Shown here: positions 1,888-27,268 of the stretch, in pieces
Layout of the letters: every line of letters begins with the position of its first letter
Numbering within the stretch: position 1 is the stretch's first letter
NCBI GenBank assembly: GCA_013204405.1
Contig: JABMNX010000033.1
Span: 1-33,860 of the forward strand
Reading direction: 5' to 3'
Length of the DNA stretch: 33,860 nt
From: Candidatus Kaiserbacteria bacterium
GTDB lineage: Bacteria > Patescibacteriota > Minisyncoccia > Phycocordibacterales > JABMNX01
Program-made: the position numbers and the translations under genes
The notes under the pieces: model-generated
Seen by the model: the letters and a program-made list of their open reading frames with translations, nothing else
The model's database searches: none
Told to the model about the DNA's origin: nothing

Positions 1888-1905
1888 GAAACCAGCACAT
1901 AACAT

Positions 1906-3408: not shown

Positions 3409-4612
3409 GAACTTAAAATTTGGAAAGGAATCTATTTTTGTACTTCTGCTTTTACTCTTTATAGGAACTTTGTTGACTGTAGAAGAACCATTATTAGATC
3501 AAAACAAGGACCTGTTAATGGAATACAGTACTTCAATTCTTGAAATATGCGCTCAAGATGAGTACCGTCCCACATGTTACGACAGGGAGATTCCAAAACT
3601 TATGGATCAAGGTTTATCAATGGAGGAAGCATTTGATGTGACACGGTTTATTCAAGACAAGGACGAGGTGTATTTTTATTGTCACGTACTTGGTCATTAC
3701 TTAAGCGGGAAAGAAACCGCAAAAGACCCGTCAAAATGGAAGGATGTGATAATCCGTGTACCAAGTGGTGTATGTTCAAACGGAGGTATCCACGGTGCAT
3801 TTCAAGAACGTTTTCGTAGTGAATCGTTACCTGATGCAGATGTGGACGACCTAAAGCCTATTTTGGCAGATATATGTAGAAAGAGGGATGATTGGGACCC
3901 AACTCCTATGGAACAGGCAACGTGCACACATGCTATAGGGCATTTAACAATGTATGTTACAGATGCTGATATAGATAAATCAATCAAGCTATGTGACGAA
4001 GTGTCTATCAACGAAAGGGGCAGAGACTTTACACAGCTTTGCTACGACGGAGCATTTATGCAAATTTTTCAACCTCTTGACCCCGAAGACTTTGGACTTG
4101 TTGAGGACATACAGCCAACAAAAGAAGAACTCCATTCTTTCTGCTGGTCTTTTGAGGGTAGAAAACGGAGCTCATGCTGGAGCGAGGGGTGGCCCCTTGT
4201 TTCCGAGGAGATTAAAGAACCTGAAGGGGTTGTCGCGCACTGTTCACAAATGAGCAAAAATTTGCAAGAGGAAAACCGTTGTTACAGCGCTTTATTTTAT
4301 GTGCTTGGTGCTCAGTTCGGTTTTGATAAAGCGCGCGTTATAGATTTCTGTTCTCGTTTCCTAGAAGAAAGAAAGGGTCAGTGCTTTGCGAATGGAGCAT
4401 CGAGAATGATTGAGATTGATTGGAGTTATATAAATAAGGCGGTCAGTATTTGTACTGCGGCTGAAGAAAAGGGAGTAGGTGATGCTTGCTATGACGAACT
4501 TCTACTCTACTCAAGCTATAATTTCATAGTTGGTTCGGAATCTTTTCTTCAACTATGTGATGGGATGCCTGATCCATGGAGAAAGCAGTGTTTAGCACAA
4601 GATAGTCGATAG
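3398..4612 (+). CDS. HGxGHG-family membrane-anchored protein, divergent (no cupredoxin domain)
   Basis: N-terminal TM; YFYCHVLGHYLSG, VCSNGGIHGAFQERF, ATCTHAIGHLT. Overlaps the preceding ORF by 11 nt. Confidence 0.65.
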   Translation: MQIKNLKFGKESIFVLLLLLFIGTLLTVEEPLLDQNKDLLMEYSTSILEICAQDEYRPTCYDREIPKLMDQGLSMEEAFDVTRFIQDKDEVYFYCHVLGHYLSGKETAKDPSKWKDVIIRVPSGVCSNGGIHGAFQERFRSESLPDADVDDLKPILADICRKRDDWDPTPMEQATCTHAIGHLTMYVTDADIDKSIKLCDEVSINERGRDFTQLCYDGAFMQIFQPLDPEDFGLVEDIQPTKEELHSFCWSFEGRKRSSCWSEGWPLVSEEIKEPEGVVAHCSQMSKNLQEENRCYSALFYVLGAQFGFDKARVIDFCSRFLEERKGQCFANGASRMIEIDWSYINKAVSICTAAEEKGVGDACYDELLLYSSYNFIVGSESFLQLCDGMPDPWRKQCLAQDSR

Positions 4613-4643
4613 AGATATTTAAACACGTAAGATCGCTAATAAT

Positions 4644-5699
4644 GTGAATGGAATATTTAAGAGTATAGCTATAGGTATCTCCATAATATTTATTATTGTA
4701 GGATATTATGTTGTATCTACAATAGGAACAAATGAGTACAATATTCCGAGATTTGTTAAATATAAACTACAGTCTTGCAACGAGTTGGTTAGTTTAGAAA
4801 AAGATAAGTGTGTTCAAGATATCGCAGATAGAATATTGTATAAAGACGGTATCCTTTCTGCTTTTGAGTTTCTTAAAACTGCGTTTCAATACGAAAAATT
4901 TACAGCGCGTGGGTGTTTTTGGGATACAGGAGTTTTAGCTCAGTATAAAGAAGAGCTACTCAAAGAGACTACGGTAGGGGAAGTTGGATTTGAAAAAGTA
5001 TTACCAAGGGCTGTATACAACTGTTATTTTTTAATAGGAAAAATAGTAGCTGCGGAACCTCTTCTGGGGTCTAGTCCTCAAGGTATTGAAAAAATACTAG
5101 AGAATACGTTACCTCTTTGCGCTCTTATTTCGAAAGAAATACGAGAACAAAATGAGTGTGAAGAAGGTGTGTATAGTTTAGCAATAGAGCATATGGGTGA
5201 AAATAATATTCAGGACGATTTATTCTCTCTCTGTAGAAGTCAGCCTGATCAATACAAGCCTCAATGTTTTTACGAATTTGCAAGAACTGCTGATATTAAG
5301 AAGGGAGATTTTTTTAGAATGCACAGCGTTATTATGCAGGCACCTACAGAGTCTCTCAGAGAATCAGTAACAAAAGCTATAGTATCAACAGGTACGAGAG
5401 GAGAAGTAAGGAGCGATAATTTTGAAAAAACTGTGAATGGATGTCGTAGTTTTCAGACTCAAGGAGTCAGAGAGGCTTGTGTAAGAGCTCTTGTTGTGGG
5501 AGTCTGGGAAGCAAGTGATATTGGGGAGGAATACCAACAAGGGGACATATTCTGCTCAAATAATTTTTTGACGCAGGTGGAGAAGCAGAGCTGTTATAAG
5601 ACTCTTTTTGGTGAGCTTTCAGTTATTTACAGTATCCCTAAAATGCAGAAAGTGTGCAATAAATTTTCACAGGAATATCAGCACATATGCGTTCTATAA
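4644..5699 (+). CDS. Degenerate HGxGHG-family paralog that has lost most conserved His
   Basis: N-terminal TM. CVRALVVGVWEASDIGEEY aligns with CLSGIAHGFLEHGTPGLEY of the 1906-3408 paralog; Cys spacing is retained (CRSQPDQYKPQCF). Confidence 0.55.
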   Translation: MNGIFKSIAIGISIIFIIVGYYVVSTIGTNEYNIPRFVKYKLQSCNELVSLEKDKCVQDIADRILYKDGILSAFEFLKTAFQYEKFTARGCFWDTGVLAQYKEELLKETTVGEVGFEKVLPRAVYNCYFLIGKIVAAEPLLGSSPQGIEKILENTLPLCALISKEIREQNECEEGVYSLAIEHMGENNIQDDLFSLCRSQPDQYKPQCFYEFARTADIKKGDFFRMHSVIMQAPTESLRESVTKAIVSTGTRGEVRSDNFEKTVNGCRSFQTQGVREACVRALVVGVWEASDIGEEYQQGDIFCSNNFLTQVEKQSCYKTLFGELSVIYSIPKMQKVCNKFSQEYQHICVL

Positions 5700-6748
5700 A
5701 AAGATATATGATAAATTTAAAAAACAAAGAAGGTATAGTACTGTTACTTGTCAGTATAATAATTATATTTTTTTTATTTATTGTAAACTCTCCTCAAGAT
5801 TTTAAACTAGACACTAGCATTAGTGATTATTCAAAACTAGAGTCTACTTTTGAAAAACGAATGGAAGATGTTGGTGGTAAAAAACTTTTTGAAGAAATAA
5901 TTTTCTTTGCAGAACTTCTTGATCCAAGTATCAAACATCTTTACGGACACATATTTGGTAAAGTGCTTTATGAAAAGGAAGGACTCGGTTCTTTTTTAAT
6001 ATGTGACTCACGCCTACAACAAGGGTGTATCCATGAATTTATTGGTAATGCTATAGTTGATTTAGGTATTGAATCAGTGACTATCTTAAATGACACATGT
6101 TTAGGGTTACAGGGAAGACAAGAGGTTCAAGCTTGTCAGCATGGAATAGGGCATGGGCTTGTGTCTCACTTTGGATATTCAGAATCCGATCTTTTGCGCG
6201 CATTGAGTGTGTGTAGAACACTCCCCACTCATGATAGTGGCCAAATGTTCGGTTGTTACGGAGGGGTTTTTATGGAACATAATGTTAAGACAATGCTTGC
6301 TGAGGAAACAGACATCCGTCACTCAGAAGATCTTTTTGAGCCATGCCGCTCTTTAGATGATGTTTACAAATCAGCGTGTTCATTTTGGCAACCGCAGTGG
6401 TGGAGACAAGAACATTTGAGTCACTTAGACCCATTGAGTGCCTATGCCCGTATGGGTTCTTACTGCTCTGATCTCAGCAAGGAACCACATCTCATTAATG
6501 TATGCTTTTTAGGTATGGGTAATCTTTTACCTATAGATGCTAACTTAGACTCAGCGCTTGCGGTTCGTATGTGCGACGCGGGTTCAGATGTCTTTGATTA
6601 TAGAATGAGTTGTAGGAAACGTGCTGGAAGAGATTTTAGTGAAGAAAGGCATACTTCAAAACTAGAGTTAGTTTGTGCAGAAATGAGTGATACAGACTAC
6701 AGACGTTGCGTTTCTTGGCTTGAGGGCAGTGTTAATGATGCGAATTAA
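5687..6748 (+). CDS. HGxGHG-family membrane-anchored protein
   Basis: TM; HLYGHIFGKVLYEKEG, GCIHEFIGNA, ACQHGIGHGLVSHFGYSE, GCYGGVFMEHN, FWQPQWWRQ. Confidence 0.7.
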   Translation: MRSIKRYMINLKNKEGIVLLLVSIIIIFFLFIVNSPQDFKLDTSISDYSKLESTFEKRMEDVGGKKLFEEIIFFAELLDPSIKHLYGHIFGKVLYEKEGLGSFLICDSRLQQGCIHEFIGNAIVDLGIESVTILNDTCLGLQGRQEVQACQHGIGHGLVSHFGYSESDLLRALSVCRTLPTHDSGQMFGCYGGVFMEHNVKTMLAEETDIRHSEDLFEPCRSLDDVYKSACSFWQPQWWRQEHLSHLDPLSAYARMGSYCSDLSKEPHLINVCFLGMGNLLPIDANLDSALAVRMCDAGSDVFDYRMSCRKRAGRDFSEERHTSKLELVCAEMSDTDYRRCVSWLEGSVNDAN

Positions 6749-6753
6749 AAAAT

Positions 6754-7803
6754 ATGAAAGAATTTTTAAATAAAAAGAGAGTAGTTATCGCAATGTGTAT
6801 AACAGCATTTTTCTTTTCATTAGTTTTTTTTGCTGGTTTTATTGATACTAGTTACGGTACAGATAGTATGGAAAATAAGACGCAGTCTGAAATCGAGTCG
6901 TATTGGCGTGCAAGTGTTAGTAATGTTGGTGGAGATGAGGCATACAAGAAATTTTCAAATATAGTGACTTTACTGGATATTGATACTCAGCATCGCTATG
7001 CACATATCTTTGGTGGGGTGCTGTATGAGGAAGAAGGAATAAATTCTTTTTCTGTCTGTGATTCAAATTTTTTGTATGGCTGTGTGCATGAATTTGTTGG
7101 AGAGGCTTTATTTGATTCAGGTGTTCAGATTTCAGATGACTTAAATTTTAACTGCATTGAGAAACTAGGAGAAAGTTCTCGTTTTTGTCAGCACGGGATA
7201 GGGCATGGTCTCATAGCGTACTTTGGATACTCTGAAGAATCTCTTAAGCAAGCACTTAACATCTGTGCACAATTGCCGACATTAGACGGAAACAAAATTG
7301 GAGGTTGTTATGGAGGGGTTTTTATGGAATATAATTTACAAAGTATGTTAGCTGACGATGGCAGTGTTCGTATTTCAGAAAATTATCTTGAGCCGTGCGC
7401 TAGTATAGATGATGAATACATGTCTTCTTGTATATACTGGCAGCCTCAGTGGTGGAGAAACGGCCCATTGAGCAGTTTTGGAACTGATGGTGAGGTGTTT
7501 AAAGAAATGGGAAAATACTGTTATGAAATTACAACCAAACGAAATTTAATTGATATTTGCTTCCAGGGTATAGGAAATATTATTGCTCCTGGGGTTGATT
7601 TTGATACAGATTTATCTATACATATGTGTAAAGAGGCAACCAGTTCAGAGAGAGATAATACTATCTGTCGTATTGCAGCAGCCAAACGAACTGTGGATGG
7701 CCCAGGTGCACAAGTAGCAAATCAAATATGTGTTGGTTTACTGGAGTATGATTTTAAGGATTGCTTTTCACAAGTAGAAATAAATAGTAATAATAAGAAC
7801 TAG
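6754..7803 (+). CDS. HGxGHG-family membrane-anchored protein
   Basis: TM; HRYAHIFGGVLYEEEG, GCVHEFVGEA, FCQHGIGHGLIAYFGYSE, GCYGGVFMEYN, YWQPQWWRN. Close paralog of the neighbours. Confidence 0.7.
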   Translation: MKEFLNKKRVVIAMCITAFFFSLVFFAGFIDTSYGTDSMENKTQSEIESYWRASVSNVGGDEAYKKFSNIVTLLDIDTQHRYAHIFGGVLYEEEGINSFSVCDSNFLYGCVHEFVGEALFDSGVQISDDLNFNCIEKLGESSRFCQHGIGHGLIAYFGYSEESLKQALNICAQLPTLDGNKIGGCYGGVFMEYNLQSMLADDGSVRISENYLEPCASIDDEYMSSCIYWQPQWWRNGPLSSFGTDGEVFKEMGKYCYEITTKRNLIDICFQGIGNIIAPGVDFDTDLSIHMCKEATSSERDNTICRIAAAKRTVDGPGAQVANQICVGLLEYDFKDCFSQVEINSNNKN

Positions 7804-7804
7804 T

Positions 7805-8842
7805 ATGAATAAAAATATAGACACATCATATTTTTTTGTTTTACTTTTACTGTTTGTTGGTTTGTTTGCAGTGGGGTATATATATAATATTCAAAATACC
7901 GAGCGAGACAAAGAAACATTATTGTTTTCAGAGTTTCATTGGGAAGAACGTGTCACAACCGTTGGTCCAGATAGGGCATATGATGAACTTATACAGTCAG
8001 CAAAAAATCTTCCTTTGGGAAAACAGCACGAACTAGTTCATGTGTTTGGAGCAGCACTATATAATGGGAAAGATTTAAATCTTCTTCTTGTATGTGATGA
8101 ACAGTTTTTGTATGGGTGCTTTCATGAATTTATTGGCAGTACTATTGCTGAACATGGTCTCCATGTTATAGAAGAGATAGATGCTATATGTAGTAAAGCG
8201 GAAGGTGGTAACAAAACTGTATGCCATCACGGAGTTGGGCACGGTATTCAAACCTATTTGGGCTATAAAGAAGAAGACTTAGTTTCTGCGTTGAAGGTCT
8301 GTGATGGTTTTCCTTTAAGTGACCCAATAGGCGGGTGTTACGGAGGGGTTTTTATGGAATATAACTTACGTACCATGCTGGGAGGTGACGATGAGATACG
8401 TTCGTTGACGGAGAATATATTATCTCCCTGTGACCATATTGAAGAGAAGTATCAAGCGTCATGTATGTTCAGGCTGCCACAATGGTGGAGACATCACCTA
8501 TCCGAGAATGTTTCTAAGGAAATAACATCACAGTTGGGTGAAATGTGCTCTACGGCGATTTTACCCAATATGGTGTCACCATGTTTTCAAGGTATAGGAA
8601 ATATTGTTGCGGTAAATGTTAATTTTGATATGGCTCAAATAATTCCCCTATGTGATGCTAGTACGTCAGATTTAGATTACACAGTAGCATGTAGAATACA
8701 GGCTCTTGTCACCAAAGGTTTTGCCAGTGGAATTTCTGTTCAAGATACTTCTAGGGTATGTCGGGCACTGCCTTTAGAAAACAAAAAAACCTGCGAGACG
8801 CAGGTTAACATAGTTGTCACTAGTTTAAAAGACCCTAAGTAA
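7805..8842 (+). CDS. HGxGHG-family membrane-anchored protein
   Basis: TM; HELVHVFGAALYNGKD, GCFHEFIGST, VCHHGVGHGIQTYLGYKEE, GCYGGVFMEYN, LPQWWRH. Confidence 0.7.
   Translation: MNKNIDTSYFFVLLLLFVGLFAVGYIYNIQNTERDKETLLFSEFHWEERVTTVGPDRAYDELIQSAKNLPLGKQHELVHVFGAALYNGKDLNLLLVCDEQFLYGCFHEFIGSTIAEHGLHVIEEIDAICSKAEGGNKTVCHHGVGHGIQTYLGYKEEDLVSALKVCDGFPLSDPIGGCYGGVFMEYNLRTMLGGDDEIRSLTENILSPCDHIEEKYQASCMFRLPQWWRHHLSENVSKEITSQLGEMCSTAILPNMVSPCFQGIGNIVAVNVNFDMAQIIPLCDASTSDLDYTVACRIQALVTKGFASGISVQDTSRVCRALPLENKKTCETQVNIVVTSLKDPK
8783..8806 (-). terminator. Rho-independent terminator for the minus strand, embedded in the 3' end of the plus-strand CDS
   Basis: AACCTGCG-AGA-CGCAGGTT, a perfect 8-bp stem. 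On the minus strand it is followed by TTTTTTTGTTTT. It lies just downstream of the minus-strand small ORF 8862-9083. Confidence 0.7.
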
Positions 8843-10810: not shown

Positions 10811-11962
10811 ATGAAGAATCTTAGGTTATATAGTAGAAAAATCCTGATAGGGATTTTACTATGTTGCTGTGTGATATTGTTTTTCAGTATCTTACTTTTT
10901 AGTGATAGAAATGACACTTCTGCTGATGAAGATATAGCTCATCAAGCCCAGTTTCTCTTAAAGCTCTCTGATGTTGATGCGGAGATATATTGGAGTGCGC
11001 GCATAGCAGAGGTTGGAGACAATGAAGCGTATAGGGAATTTGTAGATATTGAAACATACATGCCGGATGGTTCTGAACATAAACGAGCCCATATGTTTGG
11101 AGGAGCTCTCTATCAGCAAAGAGGAATCGATTCATTTACCGTATGTGATTCATCTTTTCATTACGGATGCTTTCATGAATTTATCGGCCGAGCTGTATTT
11201 GAGTACGGTAAAGACATACTCGAAGTAGCAAGTAGTAAATGTGTCGATGCTCTTGGTACAGAAGGAGTGTTGTGTCAGCATGGTGTTGGGCACAGCGCAT
11301 TGGCATATTATGGATATACACAAGAAGATCTTAAGCGTGCCCTAAACACATGCAGAAGTCTTGATGAAGATGGTGGTAATGATCCAATACGAGGATGTGA
11401 AGGTGGGGCATATATGGAGTTTAATATGCGGACTATGCTTGATGAAGAGGATGAAGTAAGACCATATGGTGACCAATTTTTACCATGCACGAATGTTTCG
11501 GAGAGCTATCACTTGGGATGTATATTTTGGCAAACACAGTGGTGGCAGGAAATATTTATGAGAGATAGTGCACACAAATACTCATCAAGTATATATACTC
11601 AAATGGGAGAAAATTGTAGAGAATTCACAAAAGATTCTTCGTTGCTACAAGCCTGCTTTGCAGGTATCGGTAACTTTGGTGCTGGTGGTGTTGATTATGT
11701 GATACCAAGCATTGTGAGTCTGTGTGATAGTGCTGCTGATAACCAAGAGCATAGTTTGTTTTGTCGACTGCGTGCGTTAAAGAAGACACCTGCGCAGAAG
11801 TTAGATACGCAAACACCGCTTGAAATATGTACTGGGCTTAGCGGGAATATTAAAAAATACTGCAGCGCTTTTACCCGTAACGAATCCGATACTCACTTCA
11901 CCACAGACGAGGGTGTTCGTGTTGATATGTCAGAACTTTTATACTTTAGGTCATTACGATAA
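10811..11962 (+). CDS. HGxGHG-family membrane-anchored protein (isolated paralog)
   Basis: From ATG 10811: MKNLRLYSRKILIGILLCCCVILFF TM; HKRAHMFGGALYQQRG, GCFHEFIGRA, LCQHGVGHSALAYYGYTQE, GCEGGAYMEFN, FWQTQWWQE. Confidence 0.7.
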   Translation: MKNLRLYSRKILIGILLCCCVILFFSILLFSDRNDTSADEDIAHQAQFLLKLSDVDAEIYWSARIAEVGDNEAYREFVDIETYMPDGSEHKRAHMFGGALYQQRGIDSFTVCDSSFHYGCFHEFIGRAVFEYGKDILEVASSKCVDALGTEGVLCQHGVGHSALAYYGYTQEDLKRALNTCRSLDEDGGNDPIRGCEGGAYMEFNMRTMLDEEDEVRPYGDQFLPCTNVSESYHLGCIFWQTQWWQEIFMRDSAHKYSSSIYTQMGENCREFTKDSSLLQACFAGIGNFGAGGVDYVIPSIVSLCDSAADNQEHSLFCRLRALKKTPAQKLDTQTPLEICTGLSGNIKKYCSAFTRNESDTHFTTDEGVRVDMSELLYFRSLR

Positions 11963-11979
11963 GATATATATTACTTTTT

Positions 11980-12804
11980 ATGCAAAAAATTATTAGATTA
12001 CAAAACCTTCTTACATTTGTTACAGAAAGCTCACATTCAAGTTTTTATAAGAAGCATTTTGGTACCTCAATGAATCATAAGGAAGTACGTACATATGAAG
12101 ATTTAGCACTTCTTCCAAGTATCTCTAAAAATGACTTGTTACAGACTCCACTTAGTGACCGATTATATATACCAACGGGGAGGGGATTGGTGAAAGTGGT
12201 TGATTCAGGGACACATTCTTTTCTTATAAAACGTGTATTGTCTGAGTTGCGGGAAGAACAGTTTGGCAATCTCGGAGAGCGTCCCACAGTCTTGTTTAGC
12301 AATGGGCACGAATCACTAGAAAAAAGCCTATGGTGTTATGAGCAAAATACTCTCCCGATGATTGGTGAGTCGACCAATATTCCTATTACTGAATATTTCG
12401 TTCATCGTTATGAGAGTGACTCATTTTTAGGAGATATAAAAACACTTGAGTCTATTTTTGAACAAAGTAAAGACGCCTTTCTTCCTGGAAGCCAATTTAC
12501 ATTATGCGAGGGTGGATTTGATCTTGTGCGGATAAAGAAACATGTTCCACTTGATTCTACTACCTTAATTCTTTCGTTTCCTGAAGTAGGAGCATGTGCT
12601 CACTCCTGTCCATATCATCTAAAAAATAATCGGTTAGTTTTTCATCCAGATAAGAATAGTATTATCGAACATGATACTAACCTTACGGTTACAAAATTAA
12701 TAGCAATGCCGACGCCAATAATTCGTTACATAACAGATGTACCTTCAAAAACAGAAGAGTATTCATGTGACTGTAAGGAAGAGGTAAGTTTTTCTCTTAC
12801 ATAA
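11980..12804 (+). CDS. PaaK-like pseudo-enzyme (lacks P-loop and C-terminal domain)
   Basis: N-terminus (SSHSSFYKKHFGT...LLPSISKNDLLQTPLSDRLYIP) aligns with the PaaK-like 17637 gene. The SGTSG loop is absent (DSGTHSFLI); IIRYITDVPS is in place of IRYRTGD. Confidence 0.5.
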   Translation: MQKIIRLQNLLTFVTESSHSSFYKKHFGTSMNHKEVRTYEDLALLPSISKNDLLQTPLSDRLYIPTGRGLVKVVDSGTHSFLIKRVLSELREEQFGNLGERPTVLFSNGHESLEKSLWCYEQNTLPMIGESTNIPITEYFVHRYESDSFLGDIKTLESIFEQSKDAFLPGSQFTLCEGGFDLVRIKKHVPLDSTTLILSFPEVGACAHSCPYHLKNNRLVFHPDKNSIIEHDTNLTVTKLIAMPTPIIRYITDVPSKTEEYSCDCKEEVSFSLT

Positions 12805-12821: not shown

Positions 12822-13944
12822 ATGACCGACAAAGAAAAATTAGACAGTTACGGACTTAAGCCTCTTGAGGACATGAAAAAGAGTGGTTGTTCTAAGGACT
12901 ACATGATAAGAGTCTCTTCTGGTACTTCTGGAAAGAAACCAGTTTTTATGATACAGAACAAGAGTCGTGATCTAGGGAAGGAGCCACTATTTTCAAATCA
13001 ATTTAAAGATGTCCGACGTATTGTTTTTTTTGGCGGTATGCTCAATGCACGGCTTTCATCCGCCGCACGATTCCTTTTTTATCTAGGTGAAGATGAGTAC
13101 ACAATACTTGCTGTCGATAACGTCGACATGAATAGTAGTCTTGAGGGTTTGTTTCGTGATTTTAAACCAGAGGGATTTATTGGGTTCCCTTCGTTTATTG
13201 CGAGAGCACTTTCTTTTGTTAACGATAAGCGTGTACTTGAACACGTGAAAGCGGTACGTTTTTCTGGTGAGATGATTAGTGATGCGCAAAAGGAATTATT
13301 TCACGATAAAATTCCTCAGGCTACATTAGAAAATATCTATGCCTCAGCAGAGGTGGGGTATATGTCAGGGGTATCGTGTAGTCATTTAAAGGAAAGTCAG
13401 TACCATCCGTACGAACGAGTAAACATAGAAATAATAAACCAAGATGAAGACGGGGTAGGTGATTTGGTGGTTTCGTATAATCTGAGTCCTTCCATTTATA
13501 TTAATCAATATGTAACAGGGGACACAGCACGTTTTTTGAAATCTCCTTGTGTGTGGAGACACCATAACATTTGAATTACTTGGACGGAGGGATTTTGATT
13601 TTATTAAATTTCTTGGCACTACACTGAGACAGGAGGAGTTTGAAAGGGTAGCAACTGAATTAGAGGAATATATTGTTGATTTTCGTGGAGAAGTTCGTGA
13701 GGTTAAAGAAGCAGATGAGCTTAAGGGAGAAATTACATTAAAAATAGTAGGGACTCCTAAGTTACAAAAAATGAAGAATCCAGAAGGGTTTATATCTAAT
13801 GAAATCTCTCAAAGACTTTTTGTGACGTCTAGTAAGACCATAGAAGATATGGTTTCAAAAGAAATTTATTTACCATTAAAAATTCAATTTGTAGATAATT
13901 TTGAGTACCAGAACAAACCAATTAAACTAAAACGAACACTTTAA
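12822..13944 (+). pseudogene. PaaK-like adenylate-forming enzyme split by a frameshift in a (TG)4 repeat (12822-13574 and 13549-13944)
   Basis: The first ORF has SSGTSGKKPVF, YASAEVGYMSG and YVTGDTARFLKSPCV; the second continues CGDTITFELLGRRDFDFIKFLG. One more TG unit at 13548-13555 gives SPCVCGDTITFELLGR, as in sister proteins. Confidence 0.6.
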
Positions 13945-13993: not shown

Positions 13994-15087
13994 ATGTTTC
14001 TTATGAAGTTTCTCAAAAAATTATTTAGCCACGAAAAAGATGTAGACAACATTAGTGACTATTCCAACTGGAGAGTTGGGTTAAGTTGTGCTGCAAGTTG
14101 GAGTTGGGGGGGGTTAGCATAGCAGTCGGCATAGCCATTATGCACTCAAAAGGCGTATTGGCTTTTCTTGTGTGGACATTTGGAAATATATTAGCCCTTC
14201 CTTTGTTTGGATTAGTTTTAAGATATTTACCGGCGAGTAGAGGATGGTTAAAATTTACACCACTGTTCTTTATATTTCTTTATGTTGAGTATTTTGCAAT
14301 AACTTTAAACTTACAAGCTATTAAGAGCGCTCTAGGAGGCGGGATTGATATATCCAGCTTTGTATTTGTAAAAGGTGATTTGATTACCCCTATAGTAATT
14401 ATCACTGGATTAGCTATTGTATTTTTTATTAATAAGTACGGACTCAAAGGAAGTATGTTAACAGACATAGGACAATATGCAGTGCAGTTAGTGGGTGTTG
14501 TTACCCTTGCTGGTGCTGGATATCTTTTAGGGGAAAGAATGGACCTTTTATGGTTGACACCAGATGGAAGGGATTGGTTACTTTTTGGTTTCTTAGGGAT
14601 TATTACCGGAGCTCTAGGTACAGGGCATCAGTGGCAGAGATTTTCAGCGTTTGAAGGAAGAGATGTCCTTAGAATAGGGCTCTGGGGTGGCTTGTTCTTT
14701 GGTATATATATGTTTTTTGTATATCTATCTGGTTTATTTTTCACGCAAAATATAATTCTTGGTGTAATATTTCTCATAATAATCCTAAGTGTTGCAACAA
14801 GTACTATAGACAGCGCTGTTGCTGGATTACAATTCATCGCAAGAAAGTTTAAACTAGACCCAAGAGCAGGGTCTCTCGTTGCTATTATCGCTGTTATGGT
14901 TTGGCCGTTTTTATCAGAAAAAGGACTTACTAATTTGTGGGGGATTATGGTACAGGTTCGGTACCCTACTGTTTTAATCGCTGTTGGTTTAACGGCGATG
15001 TATCATATATTTAAACCAAATTCTAAAATAAGAACTCAGGCAACTGGGGTCCTTCAGAAATATTTAATTATGTTTAAAGGAGAGTAA
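13994..15087 (+). pseudogene. Polytopic transporter resembling the SSS/LeuT fold, frameshifted at a G8 tract near its start
   Basis: ATG 13994 frame reads MFLMKFLKKLFSHEKDVDNISDYSNWRVGLSCAASWSWGGLA*. The rest (VSIAVGIAIMHSKG...GHQWQRFSAFEGRD...LSVATSTIDSAVAGLQFIARKF) is in another frame after G8 (14106-14113); the track calls it from 14086. Confidence 0.5.
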
Positions 15088-16682: not shown

Positions 16683-16760
16683 AATTATAGATAGTATAGC
16701 AAAGGAATTTTGTAACAAAAAACTATCTGGTGGAAAAAGAAAATCTCTCTCAAAATCACT

Positions 16761-16789
16761 TTGACCGTCATTATGCTAGACTATATAAT
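16761..16789 (+). promoter_or_regulatory. Near-consensus sigma70-type promoter, nearly leaderless
   Basis: TTGACC (16761-16766), 17-nt spacer, TATAAT (16784-16789), ATG at 16796. Confidence 0.6.
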
Positions 16790-16795
16790 ACACAC

Positions 16796-17647
16796 ATGAA
16801 AATCTCCGACACAGTAAAAGAACAACTCGCCTCGGTTTTAGAACACATAAATGATAACGAATACTGTAATTTGTATAAGTATGTGCCGAGTATAAAAAAG
16901 GAAGAAATAGGGACGGTTTTTAACACAATTCCTGCTATTACGAAAGAGGTTTTACGTTCCCACTCTGGGAATCTTTCTCATTATCCAGAAAGTAAGGTTC
17001 GTTATTTGTCTTCTGAGTTTGACCCAGAGTATGCCAACCGATTATTCCTTTTTCCACAACTGTTAGATGCTCCATGGATGTTATTAAATGAACTACTTAA
17101 AAAAAGAGATGCGGTCGTTGCTATTCTCTCAATTCCACTATTCTGGCAGGTTGGTCCTTTTTTTTATAACACATGTAAAAAGAATGGTGTTCCTATGTCA
17201 GTAATTTCTCCTCGTAATCTTCCACTCGCACGTCAAGTAATAAAAGAAGTCGAAGCACAAGCAGTAACAGGAACCCCTGAAGCTGCAGACAGTTTGTACG
17301 GGTTACTATCTGAAGAAAATATTGGAAACCAGATACATACATGGCATCTTATAGTTCCTTTTGGTGAGAATCCTGAAATCCCAATACTTCCAGGAAATGT
17401 GCTTATTGAGTACCATGTATTTCCTGGGGTACCTATAGGGCATACATCTCCGGAGTTATTAAGAGAAAATCCTTACAGTTTTATCCCTTCACCAGAGTAC
17501 TTTTTTGAGATTGATAATGGCACGTGTTTTATAACAAGCCTTGAATCTCATGCATTACCTTTTATACGGTTAGAAATAGGAAGAAATGCGGAAAAGATAA
17601 CACGTGAAGGAAAAGAGATTGTTTCAATAAAAGAATATGTCTCCTGA
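16796..17647 (+). CDS. PaaK-like pseudo-enzyme (no P-loop, no YRTGD)
   Basis: Paralog of 26408-27268: HYPESKVRYLSSEFD, VPMSVISPRNLPL, EYHVFPGVPIGHT, FLPSPEYFFE-type motif (FIPSPEYFFE). IRLEIGRNAEK replaces IRYRTGDxA. Start chosen after the promoter; the ORF track starts at 16730. Confidence 0.55.
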   Translation: MKISDTVKEQLASVLEHINDNEYCNLYKYVPSIKKEEIGTVFNTIPAITKEVLRSHSGNLSHYPESKVRYLSSEFDPEYANRLFLFPQLLDAPWMLLNELLKKRDAVVAILSIPLFWQVGPFFYNTCKKNGVPMSVISPRNLPLARQVIKEVEAQAVTGTPEAADSLYGLLSEENIGNQIHTWHLIVPFGENPEIPILPGNVLIEYHVFPGVPIGHTSPELLRENPYSFIPSPEYFFEIDNGTCFITSLESHALPFIRLEIGRNAEKITREGKEIVSIKEYVS

Positions 17648-18923
17648 GAAACAAAAAAAAGCAGCTATTGATGTCTTAAAAAAAGTACTTGTAAGTGAAC
17701 ATAGTGGCTTTTATAGAGAAAAATATAGTGCTCACATAGATACGGTGGATGCGATTATCAAAGGAAGTGAAGAGTGGGAAGCACTACCGTTTCTTACTCG
17801 TGATGACATACAAAATTCTTTATACAGTGACCGTCTCTACATACCGTTTAATGACGTTAGACTTGTGCGTGCCACGTCAGGGACCTCTGGCCTTGGTATT
17901 CTTACTATTCCAAGAGTACGACTCCATCCAGCTCCACTATTCGACAAACAATATCTTCAGCCTGATTCAATCAAACGTGCTGTAACATTTAGTGGAGCAC
18001 ATTGCGTCTACGCCGATAACTTTAGGAAGAGGTTCAATCTTGATTCTATTTATCTTGACCCAGGAGATGTGAACATTTCGTCCCGTCTTTTTAGTATTTA
18101 TAAACCTGATATTTTGTTTGGATTTCCATATGCAGTGGCATCACTTTTGCCGCATATTAATGATAAAGAATTATTAAAATCAGTCAAAGTGGTATCTCTT
18201 TTCGGAGAATGGTGTTCAGAGCTTCAGTGGAAAAATTTTGAAAAGCATTTCCCCAACGCTTTGATAATTTCAGAGTATGCAAGTGTTGAGAGTCAGTCCA
18301 CGTTGTGTGGACCGTGTTCTGAAATTATTAAAAATAAAGAACGGTTTGTACACCCATTCCCAGATAGTGTATATGCTGAGCTGATAGATCCAGCCACTAA
18401 TTCAGTTATCACAGAGGAAGGAGTGTCAGGCGAACTGGTTGTCACTGTGTTGCGTAACCCTGCTTTTCCGCTTATTCGGTATAAAACAGGTGACTCCGCT
18501 CGTATAATCCGGTCTTCGTGTTCTTGTGGTATAGGTACTTCTGTATAATCTTTGATTTCACTATGCTGTCAGGGTGAAAAACCTCTGAATATTTTACATT
18601 AAACTCTACTCCAGTGATATATTGCTGATGCTCTACAAGAACGCGATCTATTTCTGCAAGATTAATTTCTCCTTTTGGAATACGTAAACGGTCAATTGAA
18701 ATCCTGCCGTCGATGGAGTATAATAGAGCTCTCTTGGAATAAAGAAATGATAAATGCCCAAGAAATAGCGGGGTCGATAGCGCAGGTGCTTCGAGTGGCA
18801 CCAAGCTATACATATGCACAAGGGGTTATGGATGGAATATATGAACCGCTTACTGTTGAGTACCGTGAGCCAAGTAAAGCTATAGAAAAGAACTTAAGAA
18901 TCACTCATACTATTAAACAGTAG
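17637..18923 (+). pseudogene. PaaK-like adenylate-forming enzyme (type A) disrupted by an internal 175-bp inversion
   Basis: 17637-18548 has RATSGTSGLGILTIPR, IRYKTGDSARIIRSSCSCGIGTSV then stop. The minus strand encodes YSIDGRISIDRLRIPKGEINLAEIDRVL...; the plus strand resumes IELSWNKEMINAQ...APSYTYAQGVMDGIYEPL. Flipping 18546-18720 restores one 428-aa ORF collinear with 25123-26421. Confidence 0.85.
18546..18720. other. Inverted segment inside a PaaK-like gene
   Basis: Both ends lie in TATA (18544-18547 and 18719-18722). The inverted state has GTATAAT at both junctions. Re-inversion is in frame on both sides. Confidence 0.85.
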
Positions 18924-18948: not shown

Positions 18949-20274
18949 ATGTTTCTGTCCTCATTCCACAAAATAAAACTTGAAGAAGTTTTAAAATCAG
19001 TTCTTGAAAACAAACACTCATCTTTCTATGCAGACCGTTTTTTAGACAGAGCAATACGTCAACCATTAACATTTAAGTCATGGGGGAACATCCCTTTTGC
19101 AACTCGAGCCGAGATTACAGCTACACCATTTTGGGAACGAGTATTTGTCCCACGAGCCGAAGTTCCTGTAATTCGACATACATACGGAACAAGCGGAAAG
19201 AGAATCTTAATAACTCCGCGTTCAAGTTACGGTGATTATCAGGAGCCATATATAAACACTGGTATGAGTCGACTCATGTGTTTTTTTGCATCTGGTCATA
19301 ATGAATGCCCACGTGAAAGTATAGACATCCAGGTATGGTTTGGTGATGTTGGTAATCTTGAGATGTCAGCAAAAATTGCAGCAGAAGGAAGAGTTGATAG
19401 TCTATCCATTACACCATATACCGCACTTAATTTTGCTAAAGAACTTGAGAAGTACGATGCGGTGAAAAATATCAAGACAGTAATGCTTATTGGGGAACGA
19501 TGCTCTCCACTACAGCTTAAAAGAATTAATAGTCTATATCCAGACGCAGATGTATATGGAGTCTTTGCAAGTTCGGAGACACGAGAGGTAGTAGCACTTC
19601 CTTGTGTACATACTCGAAAATCTGCACCACTTGTACTTGAGCAGGTAAAGGAAATGTACTGTGAAATTATTGATCCAAACACAGGATCAGTCATTAATGA
19701 ATACGATGTGGTTGGAGAGTTGGTGATTACCACTTTAACTCTTGGGATACCATTTCCACTTATACGGTACCGCACAGGAGACATTGCTAAATATACAAAA
19801 CGTTCATGTTTGTGCGAGGAGGGAGGTCGTGGGTTTGAGGTTCTTGGAAGATCGACAGTTTTTCCCGTGAGGATGGCTAAAGGAGAATTAACAATAGATG
19901 CGGTGGAGAAGGCATTAAATGAGATACCAGATATTAATCCTAGATATTTTGAGGCACATTACTTTGAGATTGATAATAAGGATAAAAGGGTGCTACCTTG
20001 TATTCGAATGGTGTTAGTAACAGGTTCTGAAGACGAATCTAAAAATAAAGAATTAGCACAACAGATAGAACTTAAACTTTTTGTGTTTCCAACGTACACA
20101 TACGCACAAGGAGTGGAAGATGGAATCTATTTACCCATTGAAGTTTCATGCATACGCTCTGTTCCCGAAAGTTCTCCAGGAAAGCAGAGACCATCGGTCG
20201 TTGTGCGCCACATTTCCGGATCTCAATCAAATGAAGGGTATTATACTTCGGTGAGCGAAACCCGGTCATTGTAG
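18949..20274 (+). CDS. PaaK-like adenylate-forming enzyme (type B)
   Basis: RHTYGTSGKRILITPR, VYGVFASSETREVVALPC, LIRYRTGDIAKYTKRSCLCEEGGRGFEVLGR, FPTYTYAQGVEDGIYLPIEV. Confidence 0.75.
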   Translation: MFLSSFHKIKLEEVLKSVLENKHSSFYADRFLDRAIRQPLTFKSWGNIPFATRAEITATPFWERVFVPRAEVPVIRHTYGTSGKRILITPRSSYGDYQEPYINTGMSRLMCFFASGHNECPRESIDIQVWFGDVGNLEMSAKIAAEGRVDSLSITPYTALNFAKELEKYDAVKNIKTVMLIGERCSPLQLKRINSLYPDADVYGVFASSETREVVALPCVHTRKSAPLVLEQVKEMYCEIIDPNTGSVINEYDVVGELVITTLTLGIPFPLIRYRTGDIAKYTKRSCLCEEGGRGFEVLGRSTVFPVRMAKGELTIDAVEKALNEIPDINPRYFEAHYFEIDNKDKRVLPCIRMVLVTGSEDESKNKELAQQIELKLFVFPTYTYAQGVEDGIYLPIEVSCIRSVPESSPGKQRPSVVVRHISGSQSNEGYYTSVSETRSL

Positions 20275-22083: not shown

Positions 22084-23529
22084 ATGTATAAAAATATTAA
22101 AGTAGTAAATGTTGGTTATTTAATTCTTATTGTACTAGGTGTGTTGTTGGTATTTTCTACTGTTTTTTCTGGGAAGAACAGAGGGGATGGAACTCAATAC
22201 CTTTCTGAAAATGATCTAAGTTGTGAAGGTTGTAACGTGCTAGTTATAGGGTTTGATGCACTACAGGCAAATCATGTGAGTCACCTTGGATACAAAAAGA
22301 TAACAACTCCTACGTTGGACACGTTAGCATCTAATGGAGTAAGTTTTTCTCGTAATTTTAGTGTTGCTTCTTGGACAGTCCCATCTTTTATGTCTTATTT
22401 TACTTCATTGTATCCGTCTGAGCACGGGGTGGTTAATAAGTTTGTAACATTCACTGAGAATGAAAAAGTTATATCAAACCTCAAAAAGATTTCTCCTCAA
22501 GTTTTAACACTAGCAGATGCATTCAAAAGTGCTGGCTACATAACAGGAGGCTTTACAGGGGACGCTGGTGTTAATAGTATTTTTGGGTATGGGCAAGGTT
22601 TTGATACATACACGGATGAGACGACATTTGGCTCTATTGAAGGAAGTGCAAGTCACGCCCTTTCATGGCTTGATGAACATCAAGGGGAAAAATTCTTTAT
22701 GTTTCTACACGGGTATGATGCACACGGGCAATTTAGTGGCGTAGGTCCTGACTACAAACCAACTTTCGCCCATGGAGCTGATGAACAGTATGAAATTACC
22801 CCAGAGCGACAAAGGGAACTTAGGGAAAAGGGTCTTAGTGACGGTGATTTGTTGCTAGATAAGGGAGAGGTCAGTGCGTGGAATGCTTGGTACGACAGTA
22901 AGATATTTGATGCAGATGCACGGATTGGGGTATTTTTATCAGAACTTGAAAAACGTAACTTACTTGAATCATTGGTGGTGGTTGTAATTTCAGACCATGG
23001 GACTGAAATATATGAGCACAGGCGCTTTGATCATGGATATAGCTTGTACAATGAGCTTATACGTGTCCCTCTTGTTATATCAGTTCCTAACCAAGAGAAT
23101 TCATTTATATCTGATGTTCAGGTCCGTTCCATTGATCTCGCCCCAACACTTTTTGACATCACAGGCATTACTATTAATGATGATTGGAAGAATCAGATTC
23201 GTGGCTCAAGCCTTGTCCCAGTACTGACCGGAGAAGAAAAAAATAACCGTCCCGTATTTTCTTCAACTGATTATAGAAATTATACTCATAAGCGTTCTTA
23301 TATAGATGATGGTAGTTGGAAACTTATTTACACGCTTGAGACAGGTGAATCAGAACTCTACAATCTTAAAGATGATTTAAGTGAGTACAAAGATCTTGCT
23401 ACAATATTTCCAGATCGGGTTGAGAATATGAAGAATATTTTATTTGAACAGCTCCTACGTACAGGAGAGAATGTTGATGGAAAATGGGAGATAGGGTGCC
23501 TCCCTGTTTATAATGATCAGTGTATTTAA
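22084..23529 (+). CDS. Membrane-anchored sulfatase / alkaline phosphatase superfamily protein
   Basis: NVLVIGFDALQANHVSHLGYKKITTPTLDTLASNGVSFSRNFSVASWTVPSFMSYFTSLYPSEHGV; VVVISDHGTEIYEHRRFDHGYSLYNELIRVPLVI; SIDLAPTLFDITGI. Confidence 0.85.
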   Translation: MYKNIKVVNVGYLILIVLGVLLVFSTVFSGKNRGDGTQYLSENDLSCEGCNVLVIGFDALQANHVSHLGYKKITTPTLDTLASNGVSFSRNFSVASWTVPSFMSYFTSLYPSEHGVVNKFVTFTENEKVISNLKKISPQVLTLADAFKSAGYITGGFTGDAGVNSIFGYGQGFDTYTDETTFGSIEGSASHALSWLDEHQGEKFFMFLHGYDAHGQFSGVGPDYKPTFAHGADEQYEITPERQRELREKGLSDGDLLLDKGEVSAWNAWYDSKIFDADARIGVFLSELEKRNLLESLVVVVISDHGTEIYEHRRFDHGYSLYNELIRVPLVISVPNQENSFISDVQVRSIDLAPTLFDITGITINDDWKNQIRGSSLVPVLTGEEKNNRPVFSSTDYRNYTHKRSYIDDGSWKLIYTLETGESELYNLKDDLSEYKDLATIFPDRVENMKNILFEQLLRTGENVDGKWEIGCLPVYNDQCI

Positions 23530-23543
23530 GTAATAGAGATATT

Positions 23544-25133
23544 TTAGAAATACGGCTGGATGGTACCTTCTATAACAGGTTCACTGTTCCTTGTTTGTTG
23601 AGTTTTTTCCCACCAAATATCAAGCTTATTTTTTAACTCTTTAGCAACCTCTTCTTCTTTGTTATACACATTACGTAGCTCATTTGGGTCTTCCTTAAGA
23701 TTGTAGAGCTCATACAAATCTCTAATCGTATCGCGCTGTGTGATAAGATTCCACCAACCATATTGTGCTTCCTGTAGTCTTGCCTTTCTCCAGATAAGCT
23801 TCCATTCTTTCGTTCGAATCGCTACATCAAATATTGCATCTTTCTTATCAAGCTCATCAAAAGATGTCAGAGAGTCTTGTATTTTTTGATATACACTTTC
23901 TTCATTCTGAATAAATCCATTACTCGTTTGAATTGCATGTTCCCACAGTGGCACACGTACTGAAAAAGTTTCATTGCGGATACTAGAAGTAGATTTTTCA
24001 ATAAGTGGACGTAGGCTTATTCCTTCAGCTTGATTTAAAGGGGGTTCTTGTATGTAGTCAAGAATTGTAGGAAGAACATCGAAGGAATTAACCAATGAGT
24101 CTATCCGTTGCGGTTTTTCTCCTGGGATATAAATAATGAGTGGTGTGTGTATAGTGGCGTCATATATGTCGTAATGGGCATAGTAACCATGCTCTCCCAT
24201 TTCCTCACCGTGTTCTGAATGAAGTATTACAATAGTATTTTCTGCAATAACACTTCTTTTGAATGCTTTAAAAAACTTACCCAAAAATTCATCTGTGGCA
24301 CGTATATTGCTGAGATACCCCTCTTTTATATATCTACTGTCTTCATCGGTTAGTGGAGTTATTGTTGTACCAAGTTCATCAAGGGACCATATATTTCCTT
24401 CATATATAGTCCTTAAATGATCCCACCAATCTAGTTTATTTTCATCTTTTAGTGGGCCATTGTATTCTTGTTGATATGAAAATGGATAACGTCCATATGG
24501 CCAGTGAGCTGTGCCGAGAGTTAACCAGAGAAAGAATTTATCATCTGGGGGATTTTTAATCCAAGAAAGGGGATTGTTCGATAGAGCCCTACCAGACCTA
24601 AAATAAGTACGAGACTCGATTGGTGGCACCTGGAATTCTTTATAATATTCGTCAAAGCCCCTGCTAAAGCTTTCACGAAGTGCATATGAAAAGTCAAAAA
24701 ATTCGGGAGAGGAACCCATTGCCACAGTGTAATATCCACTTGACTGTAATACTTGCGCCAGAGTAATAAACTTATTATTTAAGACAGAATCAAATCGGAC
24801 TACACCACTGTTTAGGGGCGAGAGTGATGTGTGCAGGGACATTTCAGTTATTGGAGTTAAATACGATGGAGTGATGTAGTCTTCAAACACAATTGATTTC
24901 TCAGCCCAGCTATCTATTGAAGGAGTGGGGCTTTCTATTATGTTTTCATTGTACGTGCCAACATAATTCGAACCTAAGCTGTCAATAGAGATAAGAATTA
25001 TATTGCATTTTTTTTCACACGGGAGTTTGTTAATTGTCGCAAGAAAGTGTAAAGAAAAAAAACACGCGAGTAGAAAACTAAGCACGCATAGTTTATAGAT
25101 AACTTTTACTGATTGAGGATTTCTACTTATCAT
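23544..25133 (-). CDS. Membrane-anchored sulfatase / alkaline phosphatase superfamily protein
   Basis: NIILISIDSLGSNYVGTYNENIIESPTPSIDSWAEKSIVFEDYITPSYLTPITEMSLHTSLSPLNSGV; TIVILHSEHGEEMGEHGYYAHYDIYDATIHTPLIIYIPG; NSFDVLPTILDYI. Probable start ATG 25133 overlaps the stop of the PaaK-like gene. Confidence 0.85.
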   Translation of the reverse strand: MISRNPQSVKVIYKLCVLSFLLACFFSLHFLATINKLPCEKKCNIILISIDSLGSNYVGTYNENIIESPTPSIDSWAEKSIVFEDYITPSYLTPITEMSLHTSLSPLNSGVVRFDSVLNNKFITLAQVLQSSGYYTVAMGSSPEFFDFSYALRESFSRGFDEYYKEFQVPPIESRTYFRSGRALSNNPLSWIKNPPDDKFFLWLTLGTAHWPYGRYPFSYQQEYNGPLKDENKLDWWDHLRTIYEGNIWSLDELGTTITPLTDEDSRYIKEGYLSNIRATDEFLGKFFKAFKRSVIAENTIVILHSEHGEEMGEHGYYAHYDIYDATIHTPLIIYIPGEKPQRIDSLVNSFDVLPTILDYIQEPPLNQAEGISLRPLIEKSTSSIRNETFSVRVPLWEHAIQTSNGFIQNEESVYQKIQDSLTSFDELDKKDAIFDVAIRTKEWKLIWRKARLQEAQYGWWNLITQRDTIRDLYELYNLKEDPNELRNVYNKEEEVAKELKNKLDIWWEKTQQTRNSEPVIEGTIQPYF

Positions 25134-26421
25134 CTCGAAATATCTTTTTCTTTTTACCAGTAGAGGCTTTAGTATGAACCAGTGGCACAATTTCAAGAGA
25201 CATATATATATTTTCTTCGACTCCATCTGCATAAACACGGTCTGGAGCAATACGTAGAGATTTTGATAGAGCCTCTTTTAAAGTGCTTGTGCTTTTATCT
25301 GGAGAAATAAGAGAAAGATGTATTGATATCTGTGGTTTAAACACACCGTCTTCATCTACAATTTCTTTGTAATGGACCTCAAAGTCTCCACTATTTAGAT
25401 AATCACTATGTAGTGAAATAACTCGATCAACCTCTGATAAGTTAAGTTCTCCTTTTCTAAAACGTAGACGGTCTATATCTAACCTACCGTCAATTGAGAG
25501 GACTGGTGTTGTTATTCCACATTCACATTCATGACGGATTATTTGTGCTAAATCTCCTGTTCGATATCGTATAAGTGGGAAAGCAACAGGGCGGATTGTT
25601 GTTATTACTAGCTCTCCACCGACTCCATTTTCTTTAATAATTTCTTCAGATATTGGGTTAATAATTTCTGTATACACATATTCAGGGACAGGGTGTACGT
25701 ATTGTTTGTGTTCATTAATTGCAATACTGCATGGGACTGCCACAGATGTTTGTGACTCAATACTCGCGTACTCGGAAACTATTTTTGCGTTTGGGAATAA
25801 CCTTTGGAATTCATTCCACTGGAATTGAGAACACCATTCACCAAATACTTGTATTGCTTTTACTTTCTTTCGGACGTTTGTCGGTAGATTTTCTGACAAA
25901 GCTCCAAGAGCATACACGGGCCCTGCAAGCATGTCTGGCATGTAAAGCGTAATGAGGTGTGCCGCTAATGGAATATCACCAGGGTCAACGTTTATTGAAT
26001 CGATTCCTGCTAGTCTTCGAAACGATGGACTATAATAAAATTGAGCACCGCTAAATGTAGCAAGGCGGTGTACATTAAGAGAAACAAACAACCTATAGTT
26101 TAAAGGCAGTTTATTTCCTTCATGGGACATTGTGCGTGGTACTGGGAGAATACCTGCTCCTGATGTTCCAGAAGTGGGTCGGATTATCTCTACATCTTTT
26201 TCGTCAACATATAAGCGTTCGTGCATCGGAAATTTTTGTATCTCCCCACGTGATAAAAATGGTATGTCCTCCCACGCAGTTTCGTCTCCTTCAAGAAATG
26301 ATTGCACAGATGTTTCTCCGAAGTATTTTTCTCGGTAGAAGTTGCTCTTGGAGCTTTTTGTTACTTCTTTTAGCACTGTAGCTAGTGCCGAGTATGGAAA
26401 ATTCAAATTATTCATGTCCAA
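25123..26421 (-). CDS. PaaK-like adenylate-forming enzyme (type A, intact)
   Basis: RPTSGTSGAGILPVPR, VSEYASIESQTSVAVPC, LIRYRTGDLAQIIRHECECGITTPVLSIDGRLDIDRLRFRKGELNLSEVDRV. Confidence 0.75.
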   Translation of the reverse strand: MDMNNLNFPYSALATVLKEVTKSSKSNFYREKYFGETSVQSFLEGDETAWEDIPFLSRGEIQKFPMHERLYVDEKDVEIIRPTSGTSGAGILPVPRTMSHEGNKLPLNYRLFVSLNVHRLATFSGAQFYYSPSFRRLAGIDSINVDPGDIPLAAHLITLYMPDMLAGPVYALGALSENLPTNVRKKVKAIQVFGEWCSQFQWNEFQRLFPNAKIVSEYASIESQTSVAVPCSIAINEHKQYVHPVPEYVYTEIINPISEEIIKENGVGGELVITTIRPVAFPLIRYRTGDLAQIIRHECECGITTPVLSIDGRLDIDRLRFRKGELNLSEVDRVISLHSDYLNSGDFEVHYKEIVDEDGVFKPQISIHLSLISPDKSTSTLKEALSKSLRIAPDRVYADGVEENIYMSLEIVPLVHTKASTGKKKKIFRDDK

Positions 26422-27268
26422 TTGTTATATGTCCATCTTGGTCTACAGAGGTATTTGTAGAGATAGCAAAACGAATAAGCGGTATTGTATGGCACTTAAG
26501 ACTAGTTATGTAGCAACAGTCGTTAATAACTTCAAAGAAATATTCTGGAGAAGGTAGAAAACTTAAAGAATCCTGTTTTGATGAAGGGTTTGTGTACCCG
26601 ATTGGTATTCCTGGGAAAAGATGGTACTCAATAGATGTGTCGCCACTGAGTTGTGGTATAGTCACTTTTTTATTAAGTGGAGCAACGATGTGCCACAACC
26701 GCACTTGTTCCTGTAAACCTTCAGATTTTAAGATATTAAATACATCTTCTGCGACATCTGATGTCGCAACAACCATTTGCGCTTCCGTTTCTTTGATTAA
26801 TTGCGTAATCAGTGGTGGGTTGCGTGGGGAAAGTACTGATACTGGTACATTCTTTTTCCTACATGTTTTGTAGAACATTGGACCAAGTTGCCATGAGAGC
26901 GGTACGGTCATTATAGCAACTCGTGGTGTGTACGCTGCAACTTCATCGGCAACTGTGTCCCATTCCGCATCTATGTTTTGAGCGTATAAAAATAAGTCCT
27001 TCCAATTATCTAAATCAAATTCAGATACAAGATATCGAATATCTTTTTCTGGGTAGTGAATTAACTTTTCTTTATGCTTAATTAATTCAGTAGCAGACAC
27101 CGTTGGTATTTTTTGTAACTCCTCAAGAAACGTTTCTTGAGAGCCCGAAACTATCGGTAAGTCCGCGTACAGGTCGCTTAAAGTGTTCTCTCGGGCGAAA
27201 TCTAAAACCGTGTGGATATCGTGTATGATTTCTTTACTGATAGGTGTGTGCCAATCTTTTGTGCTCAT
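26408..27268 (-). CDS. PaaK-like pseudo-enzyme (no P-loop, no YRTGD)
   Basis: Paralog of 16796-17647: HYPEKDIRYLVSEFD, VPVSVLSPRNPPLI, EYHLFPGIPIGYT, FLPSPEYFFEV. IRFAISTNTSVD replaces IRYRTGD. Confidence 0.6.
   Translation of the reverse strand: MSTKDWHTPISKEIIHDIHTVLDFARENTLSDLYADLPIVSGSQETFLEELQKIPTVSATELIKHKEKLIHYPEKDIRYLVSEFDLDNWKDLFLYAQNIDAEWDTVADEVAAYTPRVAIMTVPLSWQLGPMFYKTCRKKNVPVSVLSPRNPPLITQLIKETEAQMVVATSDVAEDVFNILKSEGLQEQVRLWHIVAPLNKKVTIPQLSGDTSIEYHLFPGIPIGYTNPSSKQDSLSFLPSPEYFFEVINDCCYITSLKCHTIPLIRFAISTNTSVDQDGHITIGHE

What the first reader, a model, noticed from the sequence alone, without database searches (positions are those of the whole stretch)
18546..18720. Exact 175-bp inversion inside a PaaK-like gene; flipping it restores the ORF
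Seen: the 17637 ORF stops right after CSCGIGTSV. The next ~170 bp encode the continuation (YSIDGRISIDRLRIPKGEINLAEIDRVL...VKSKII) on the opposite strand, then the plus strand resumes (IELSWNKEMINAQ...TYAQGVMDGIYEPL). Inverting 18546-18720 gives ...GIGTSV-YSIDGR...VKSKI-I-IELSW... in frame at both joins. The total of 428 aa is collinear with the intact paralog 25123-26421. The breakpoints sit in TATA at both ends; in the restored state they are the palindromes GTATAC and ATTATAAT. Inference: an invertible on/off switch, or a microhomology-mediated inversion or assembly flip. No recombinase is visible in the window.
Basis: seen in the sequence. Interest (0 to 1): 0.85.

Follow-up and report, generated by a model that had tools for sequence, protein, structure and literature searches.

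The report
Small inversion breaks a ligase gene
In the assembled genome of an uncultured, probably ultra-small bacterium, about 175 letters inside an enzyme gene lie back to front and cut the enzyme short; the sequence fits a recent one-off mutation (or an assembly fault) better than a built-in genetic switch, because the repeats and the neighbouring enzyme that such switches use are missing.

Summary
Inverting about 175 bp (18546-18720) turns a 303-aa truncated ORF into a 428-aa PaaK-family acyl-adenylate/CoA ligase. It is collinear without gaps at either join with an intact, syntenic orthologue in another genome (G048, 50% identity) and with the paralogue at 25123-26421. The inverted part is as conserved (55%) as its flanks (51% and 46%), so the inversion is young. 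The switch reading is not supported: no inverted repeat beyond 4 bp, no dyad sites, no recombinase on this complete 33.9-kb contig (one large serine and two tyrosine recombinases lie on other contigs), and no second orientation in any data I could reach. Best explanation: a recent, non-programmed microinversion that removes the hinge and C-terminal domain. The main rival is a local assembly error in this 53-contig draft. One unforeseen feature: the found orientation creates a near-consensus sigma-70 promoter (TTGAAA-N17-TATAAT, 11/12) facing the next gene. About 0.15% of random inversions do so, or 1% of TATA-to-TATA ones; this is post hoc. Reads would decide.

The parts
17637..18548 (+). Truncated PaaK-family acyl-adenylate/CoA ligase gene (303 aa): N-terminal adenylate-forming domain, ends just after CSCGIGTSV
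   Evidence: ORF list; Pfam AMP-binding PF00501, below cut-off; profile of its family hits PaaK structures 4r1l and 2y27; intact orthologue G048:C3
18546..18720 (-). Inverted segment, 58 codons of the same gene read on the minus strand (hinge motif SIDGR..IDRLRIPKGEINLAEID and start of the C-terminal domain); ends uncertain by up to about 9 bp
18721..18923 (+). Remaining 3' part of the broken gene (67 codons plus stop), still open in the original frame
18544..18548 (.). Left junction, 4-bp TATA microhomology (GTA|TAATC as found; GTA|TACTC restored)
18718..18722 (.). Right junction, same TATA microhomology (AGTA|TAATAG as found; ATTA|TAATAG restored)
18696..18724 (+). Promoter-like sequence TTGAAA-N17-TATAAT (11/12) that exists only in the found orientation; points at the intact PaaK-like gene 18949-20274
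16730..17647 (+). Upstream partner gene in the same operon, PaaK-like N-domain-only protein; conserved next to the intact orthologue in G048
   Evidence: G048 L050:11962-12795, 50%; hhalign to the PaaK-like family, probability 96.6
18949..20274 (+). Downstream intact PaaK-like gene (441 aa)
25123..26421 (-). Intact paralogue, 44% identical to the restored protein; AlphaFold model is PaaK-like

Best explanation
A recent, accidental microinversion of about 175 bp (roughly 171-193 bp) has disabled a PaaK-family acyl-adenylate-forming ligase in the sampled lineage. Inferred mechanism: microhomology-scale template switching or break-induced copying during replication or repair, in which the polymerase jumps at a TATA tetramer to the other strand, copies the intervening segment backwards and returns at the partner TATA, leaving a balanced inversion. 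Shown: the segment is inverted, balanced and young, and the break falls in the linker between the N-terminal adenylation domain and the hinge/C-terminal domain. Inferred: the truncated 303-aa product, lacking the hinge and C-domain, is inactive as a ligase; other PaaK-like copies remain; the event was not recombinase-driven. The downstream gene may be served by a promoter created at the right junction.
For: The restored ORF is collinear and ungapped at both joins with the orthologue and paralogue. The G048 operon (16730-like gene followed by an intact 17637-like gene) shows that the intact state is ancestral. Conservation inside equals that outside, and there is no stop in the 125 restored codons downstream of the left break; absence of stops gives d < 0.21 substitutions per site (95%) since the break. 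Only 4 bp of flanking homology and no other inverted-repeat or dyad signal. No recombinase on the contig; the genome's large serine recombinase (C37) and two tyrosine recombinases (C32, C43) are unlinked. In an intragenic strand-flip scan of about 176 kb of the genome, the higher-scoring candidates I opened were ordinary opposite-strand genes, so no second such flip was found. Balanced microinversions with inverted repeats of only 3-8 nt are documented in primates, with template-switch and MMBIR models (PMC8755829).
Against: The primate microinversions are 17-33 nt, much shorter than this one, and that paper doubts double template switching at 3-4 nt repeats. The 4-bp homology is barely more than chance. 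No reads or second strain were available, so an assembly fault cannot be ruled out. Two other frame-breaking spots lie 4-5 kb upstream, which could mean an unreliable or decaying stretch.
Confidence: 0.57

Rival explanations
1. Local assembly error: the real genome carries the intact 428-aa gene and the contig flips the segment.
For: The source is a 53-contig draft. Local assembly errors are common in uncurated metagenome assemblies, suspected to be prominent with IDBA-UD; 13 were reported in one 1.13-Mb CPR genome before curation (PMC7111523). The coding content is perfectly preserved, as expected if the gene is really intact. Two further frame breaks at simple repeats lie nearby.
Against: A de Bruijn assembler should not be misled by a 4-bp repeat; both junctions need supporting k-mers (general knowledge). 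Scaffolding or gap-filling errors normally leave Ns, duplicated k-mers or lost bases, whereas this inversion is balanced and the sampled contigs have no N.
Confidence: 0.25
2. Programmed intragenic inverton (on/off phase switch) flipped by a site-specific recombinase in trans.
For: Clean flip at a domain boundary; both orientations plausible; one large serine and two tyrosine recombinases are encoded elsewhere in the genome. Recombinases need not be linked to their sites (PMC5903667).
Against: Invertons are bounded by inverted repeats of about 10-40 nt (PMC11892184; PMC5903667). Here there are 4 bp, with background similarity over +-20 bp and no dyad symmetry. No second orientation observed.
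Confidence: 0.08
3. Adaptive promoter capture: the inversion was kept because it replaces the 3' part of the ligase gene by a new promoter that drives the downstream ligase 18949.
For: The right junction of the found state creates TTGAAA-N17-TATAAT. In this genome matches of 11/12 or better are intergenic in 8 of 10 cases, against 12% intergenic DNA; only 0.15% of random inversions, and 1% of inversions between TATA pairs, create one. A match of the same strength stands just before the likely start of the operon's first gene (16761-16789).
Against: Found after the fact; TATAAT already exists at the right end in the restored state. No expression data; the promoter-like site ends 225 bp before the gene.
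Confidence: 0.1

Closest known systems
Microinversions with short flanking inverted repeats (human-chimpanzee set, Potapova et al. 2022, PMC8755829; short-range template switching)
   Same: Balanced, sequence-preserving small inversion bordered by a few complementary bases; no recombinase
   Different: This one is about 175 bp (theirs 17-33 nt), lies in a bacterial gene and truncates it; the original state is known only from a distant orthologue and a paralogue
Intragenic invertons (Chanin et al. 2024, cited in PMC11868660; the paper itself was not held)
   Same: A small inversion wholly inside a coding sequence that truncates or restores a protein
   Different: No 10-40 nt inverted repeats, no evidence of both orientations, no assigned recombinase
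PaaK family phenylacetate-CoA-ligase-like adenylate-forming enzymes (PDB 4r1l, 2y27, 9s3l)
   Same: Sequence profile and fold match over nearly the whole length
   Different: Substrate unknown; only 16-20% identical in structure alignments; this copy is truncated before the hinge

Membership tests
Inverton (site-specific phase-variable inversion) | Flanking inverted repeats of about 10-40 nt | tested here: not met
   4 bp; +-20 bp similarity 12/40, background 10.5 +- 2.8
Inverton (site-specific phase-variable inversion) | Both orientations present in the population | not testable with these tools
   No reads, no second strain; no viral contig encodes a relative, and the genome collections gave only distant homologues
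Inverton (site-specific phase-variable inversion) | A serine or tyrosine recombinase acting on the site | tested here: inconclusive
   None on the contig; a large serine recombinase on C37 and tyrosine recombinases on C32 and C43
Large serine integrase attB x attP inversion | Quasi-palindromic attachment sites of about 40-50 bp around the crossover | tested here: not met
   Dyad matches over +-20 bp 7 and 6, background 5.2 +- 2.0
Microhomology-associated microinversion | Balanced inversion without loss or gain | tested here: met
   Ungapped collinearity at both junctions with L008 and the paralogue; base-level exactness needs a close relative
Microhomology-associated microinversion | Short inverted repeats at the breakpoints | tested here: inconclusive
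   4-bp TATA fits one of six near-equal solutions; P = 0.13 after choice
PaaK-like adenylate-forming ligase (restored gene) | Sequence and fold match to PaaK structures over both domains | tested here: met
   Profile of close homologues vs 4r1l E = 1e-55; paralogue model vs 2y27 E = 4e-23

The most novel reading that the evidence does not exclude
A recombinase-independent (or minimal-site) intragenic switch in an ultra-small bacterium: one orientation makes a full ligase, the other makes an N-domain-only protein like its natural operon partner and at the same time creates a consensus promoter for the next ligase, so that the flip exchanges which ligase is expressed.
Probability: 0.06. Interest if true: 0.75.

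Novelty: new member of a known kind. Interest (0 to 1): 0.33.

Why it matters
If real, it is a cleanly readable bacterial microinversion at gene scale with almost no flanking homology, a mutation class that gene callers report only as a truncated gene. It shows that a truncated ORF followed by an antisense continuation can be diagnosed by flipping. If both orientations coexist, it would extend intragenic phase variation to ends far shorter than the inverted repeats of about 10 nt or more by which invertible segments are recognised now.

Tried and rejected
Inverted repeats or att-like dyads at the ends: none above background. Recombinase beside the segment: none. Orthologues in the genus and family: no orthologue in the two same-genus or three same-family genomes held (G002 has only distant PaaK-like hits), so orientation in close relatives could not be tested. 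My first genome scan for other flips was dominated by ordinary antisense reading of real genes; the stricter scan still listed four candidates above this one. I opened the three best: the L049 pair is RNase-like, rpsP-like and TrmD-like neighbours and the L039 one is a uracil-DNA-glycosylase-like neighbour (names from my own reading of the sequences), so they were rejected; the fourth, in L046, was not opened. Terminator-like hairpin at 18569-18588: within chance. Fold of the truncated protein: not run, the paralogue was folded instead.

Full report
What was checked. The window is the whole of contig C30 (33,860 bp) of a 595-kb, 53-contig draft genome, 93% complete, of a size typical of ultra-small (CPR/Patescibacteria-like) bacteria; the assignment to that group is my inference from genome size. 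The gene at 17637 stops at 18546-18548 after CSCGIGTSV. Inverting 18546-18720 yields a single 428-codon frame ending at the stop at 18921.

Is it real in the sequence? Yes. The restored protein aligns without gaps at either junction to the intact orthologue in G048 (C3:12791-14002, 50.6% identity, E = 1e-138) and to the intact paralogue 25123-26421 (44%). In G048 the upstream partner gene (50% to 16730-17647) directly precedes the intact gene, and sulfatase genes (61% and 35%) lie next to the pair, so this is a conserved operon. Identity to the G048 protein is 51% before, 55% inside and 46% after the inverted stretch. The segment has coding character only when inverted (score +10.6, median for real genes 10.4; found orientation -11.6 or lower). 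The 125 restored codons downstream of the left break contain no stop, which bounds neutral divergence since the event at about 0.2 substitutions per site.

How exact? Less than claimed. Five breakpoint pairs are identical by TATA slippage, and five other products, with ends up to 9 bp further out, fit the homologues about equally well, one of them slightly better. The TATA solution is the only one with 4 bp of homology, but a 4-bp match somewhere among nearby in-frame choices is expected 13% of the time.

What protein is it? A profile of the close homologues matches PaaK-family structures (4r1l 1e-55; 2y27 9e-46), and the AlphaFold model of the paralogue (pLDDT 83) matches 2y27 and 4r1l at E of about 1e-23. 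The break falls between the YKTGD motif with its CxCG and the SIDGR..D hinge motif, that is, between the large N-terminal domain and the hinge plus C-terminal domain (paralogue residues 307/308, at the start of the strand at 307-313). From general knowledge of adenylate-forming enzymes, loss of the hinge and C-domain should abolish CoA-thioester formation. The operon partner 16730 and its homologue 26408 are themselves PaaK-like proteins that end near this point (hhalign probability 96.6), so a stable N-domain-only product is conceivable.

Mechanism. Evidence for a programmed switch is missing: published invertons have inverted repeats of 10-40 nt, here there are 4; there is no linked recombinase; the genome's serine and tyrosine recombinases are on contigs C37, C32 and C43. 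A balanced microinversion by template switching or microhomology-mediated break-induced replication is the closest described process (PMC8755829), though those examples are shorter. In a scan of about 176 kb of the same genome I found no second convincing case; of four higher-scoring candidates I opened the best three, and they are ordinary opposite-strand genes. An assembly fault is the main rival: local errors are common in uncurated metagenome assemblies (PMC7111523), but a balanced flip at a 4-bp repeat with no Ns is not what assemblers usually produce (inference).

An unforeseen feature. The right junction as found makes TTGAAA-N17-TATAAT (18696-18724), 11 of 12 to the sigma-70 consensus; in the restored state the -10 is there but not the -35. 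In this genome matches of 11 or 12 are rare (10 in 176 kb) and mostly intergenic (8 of 10, this one counted, against 12% of the DNA), so such a match means something here. Random inversions produce one in 0.15% of cases, TATA-TATA inversions in 1%. It may let the downstream ligase gene be transcribed on its own. This is post hoc and untested.

Verdict. Observation confirmed; on/off switch not supported; most likely a recent accidental microinversion that truncates a PaaK-like ligase (0.57), with assembly error at 0.25. Reads across the four junctions would settle it.

Noticed in passing
window 12822-13944, break at 13549-13574: A second PaaK-like gene is split by a frame change in a TGTGTGTG run exactly at its CxCG codons; the two halves align to restored residues 76-295 and 297-426 of the inverted gene. 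Two broken PaaK-like genes on one contig suggest decay, slippage or consensus errors.
   Followed up: partly
window 13994-15087, tract at 14106-14113: A run of eight G, the only G/C run of 8 or more in 176 kb sampled, sits where a transporter-like reading frame (13994-14122, then 14086-15087) changes frame; it could be a slippage-type phase-variable tract or an indel error. No homologue in 197 genomes of the order or in the PDB.
   Followed up: partly
window 16730-17647, 26408-27268, 11980-12804: Short PaaK-like proteins that lack the C-terminal domain are encoded next to full-length PaaK-like genes, as natural pairs (also in G048); relation shown for 16730 and 26408 by profile comparison and for 11980 by blastp. 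A two-component ligase is possible.
   Followed up: partly
window 373-8842 and 10814-11962: An array of large, mutually related proteins (22-39% identical in pairs; the first with a weak cupredoxin-like match) with no Pfam family for most; the array recurs in G048 beside the same ligases.
   Followed up: no
window 22084-23529 and 23544-25250: Two sulfatase-family genes next to the ligase pairs; conserved in G048 (61% and 35%) in the same neighbourhood.
   Followed up: no
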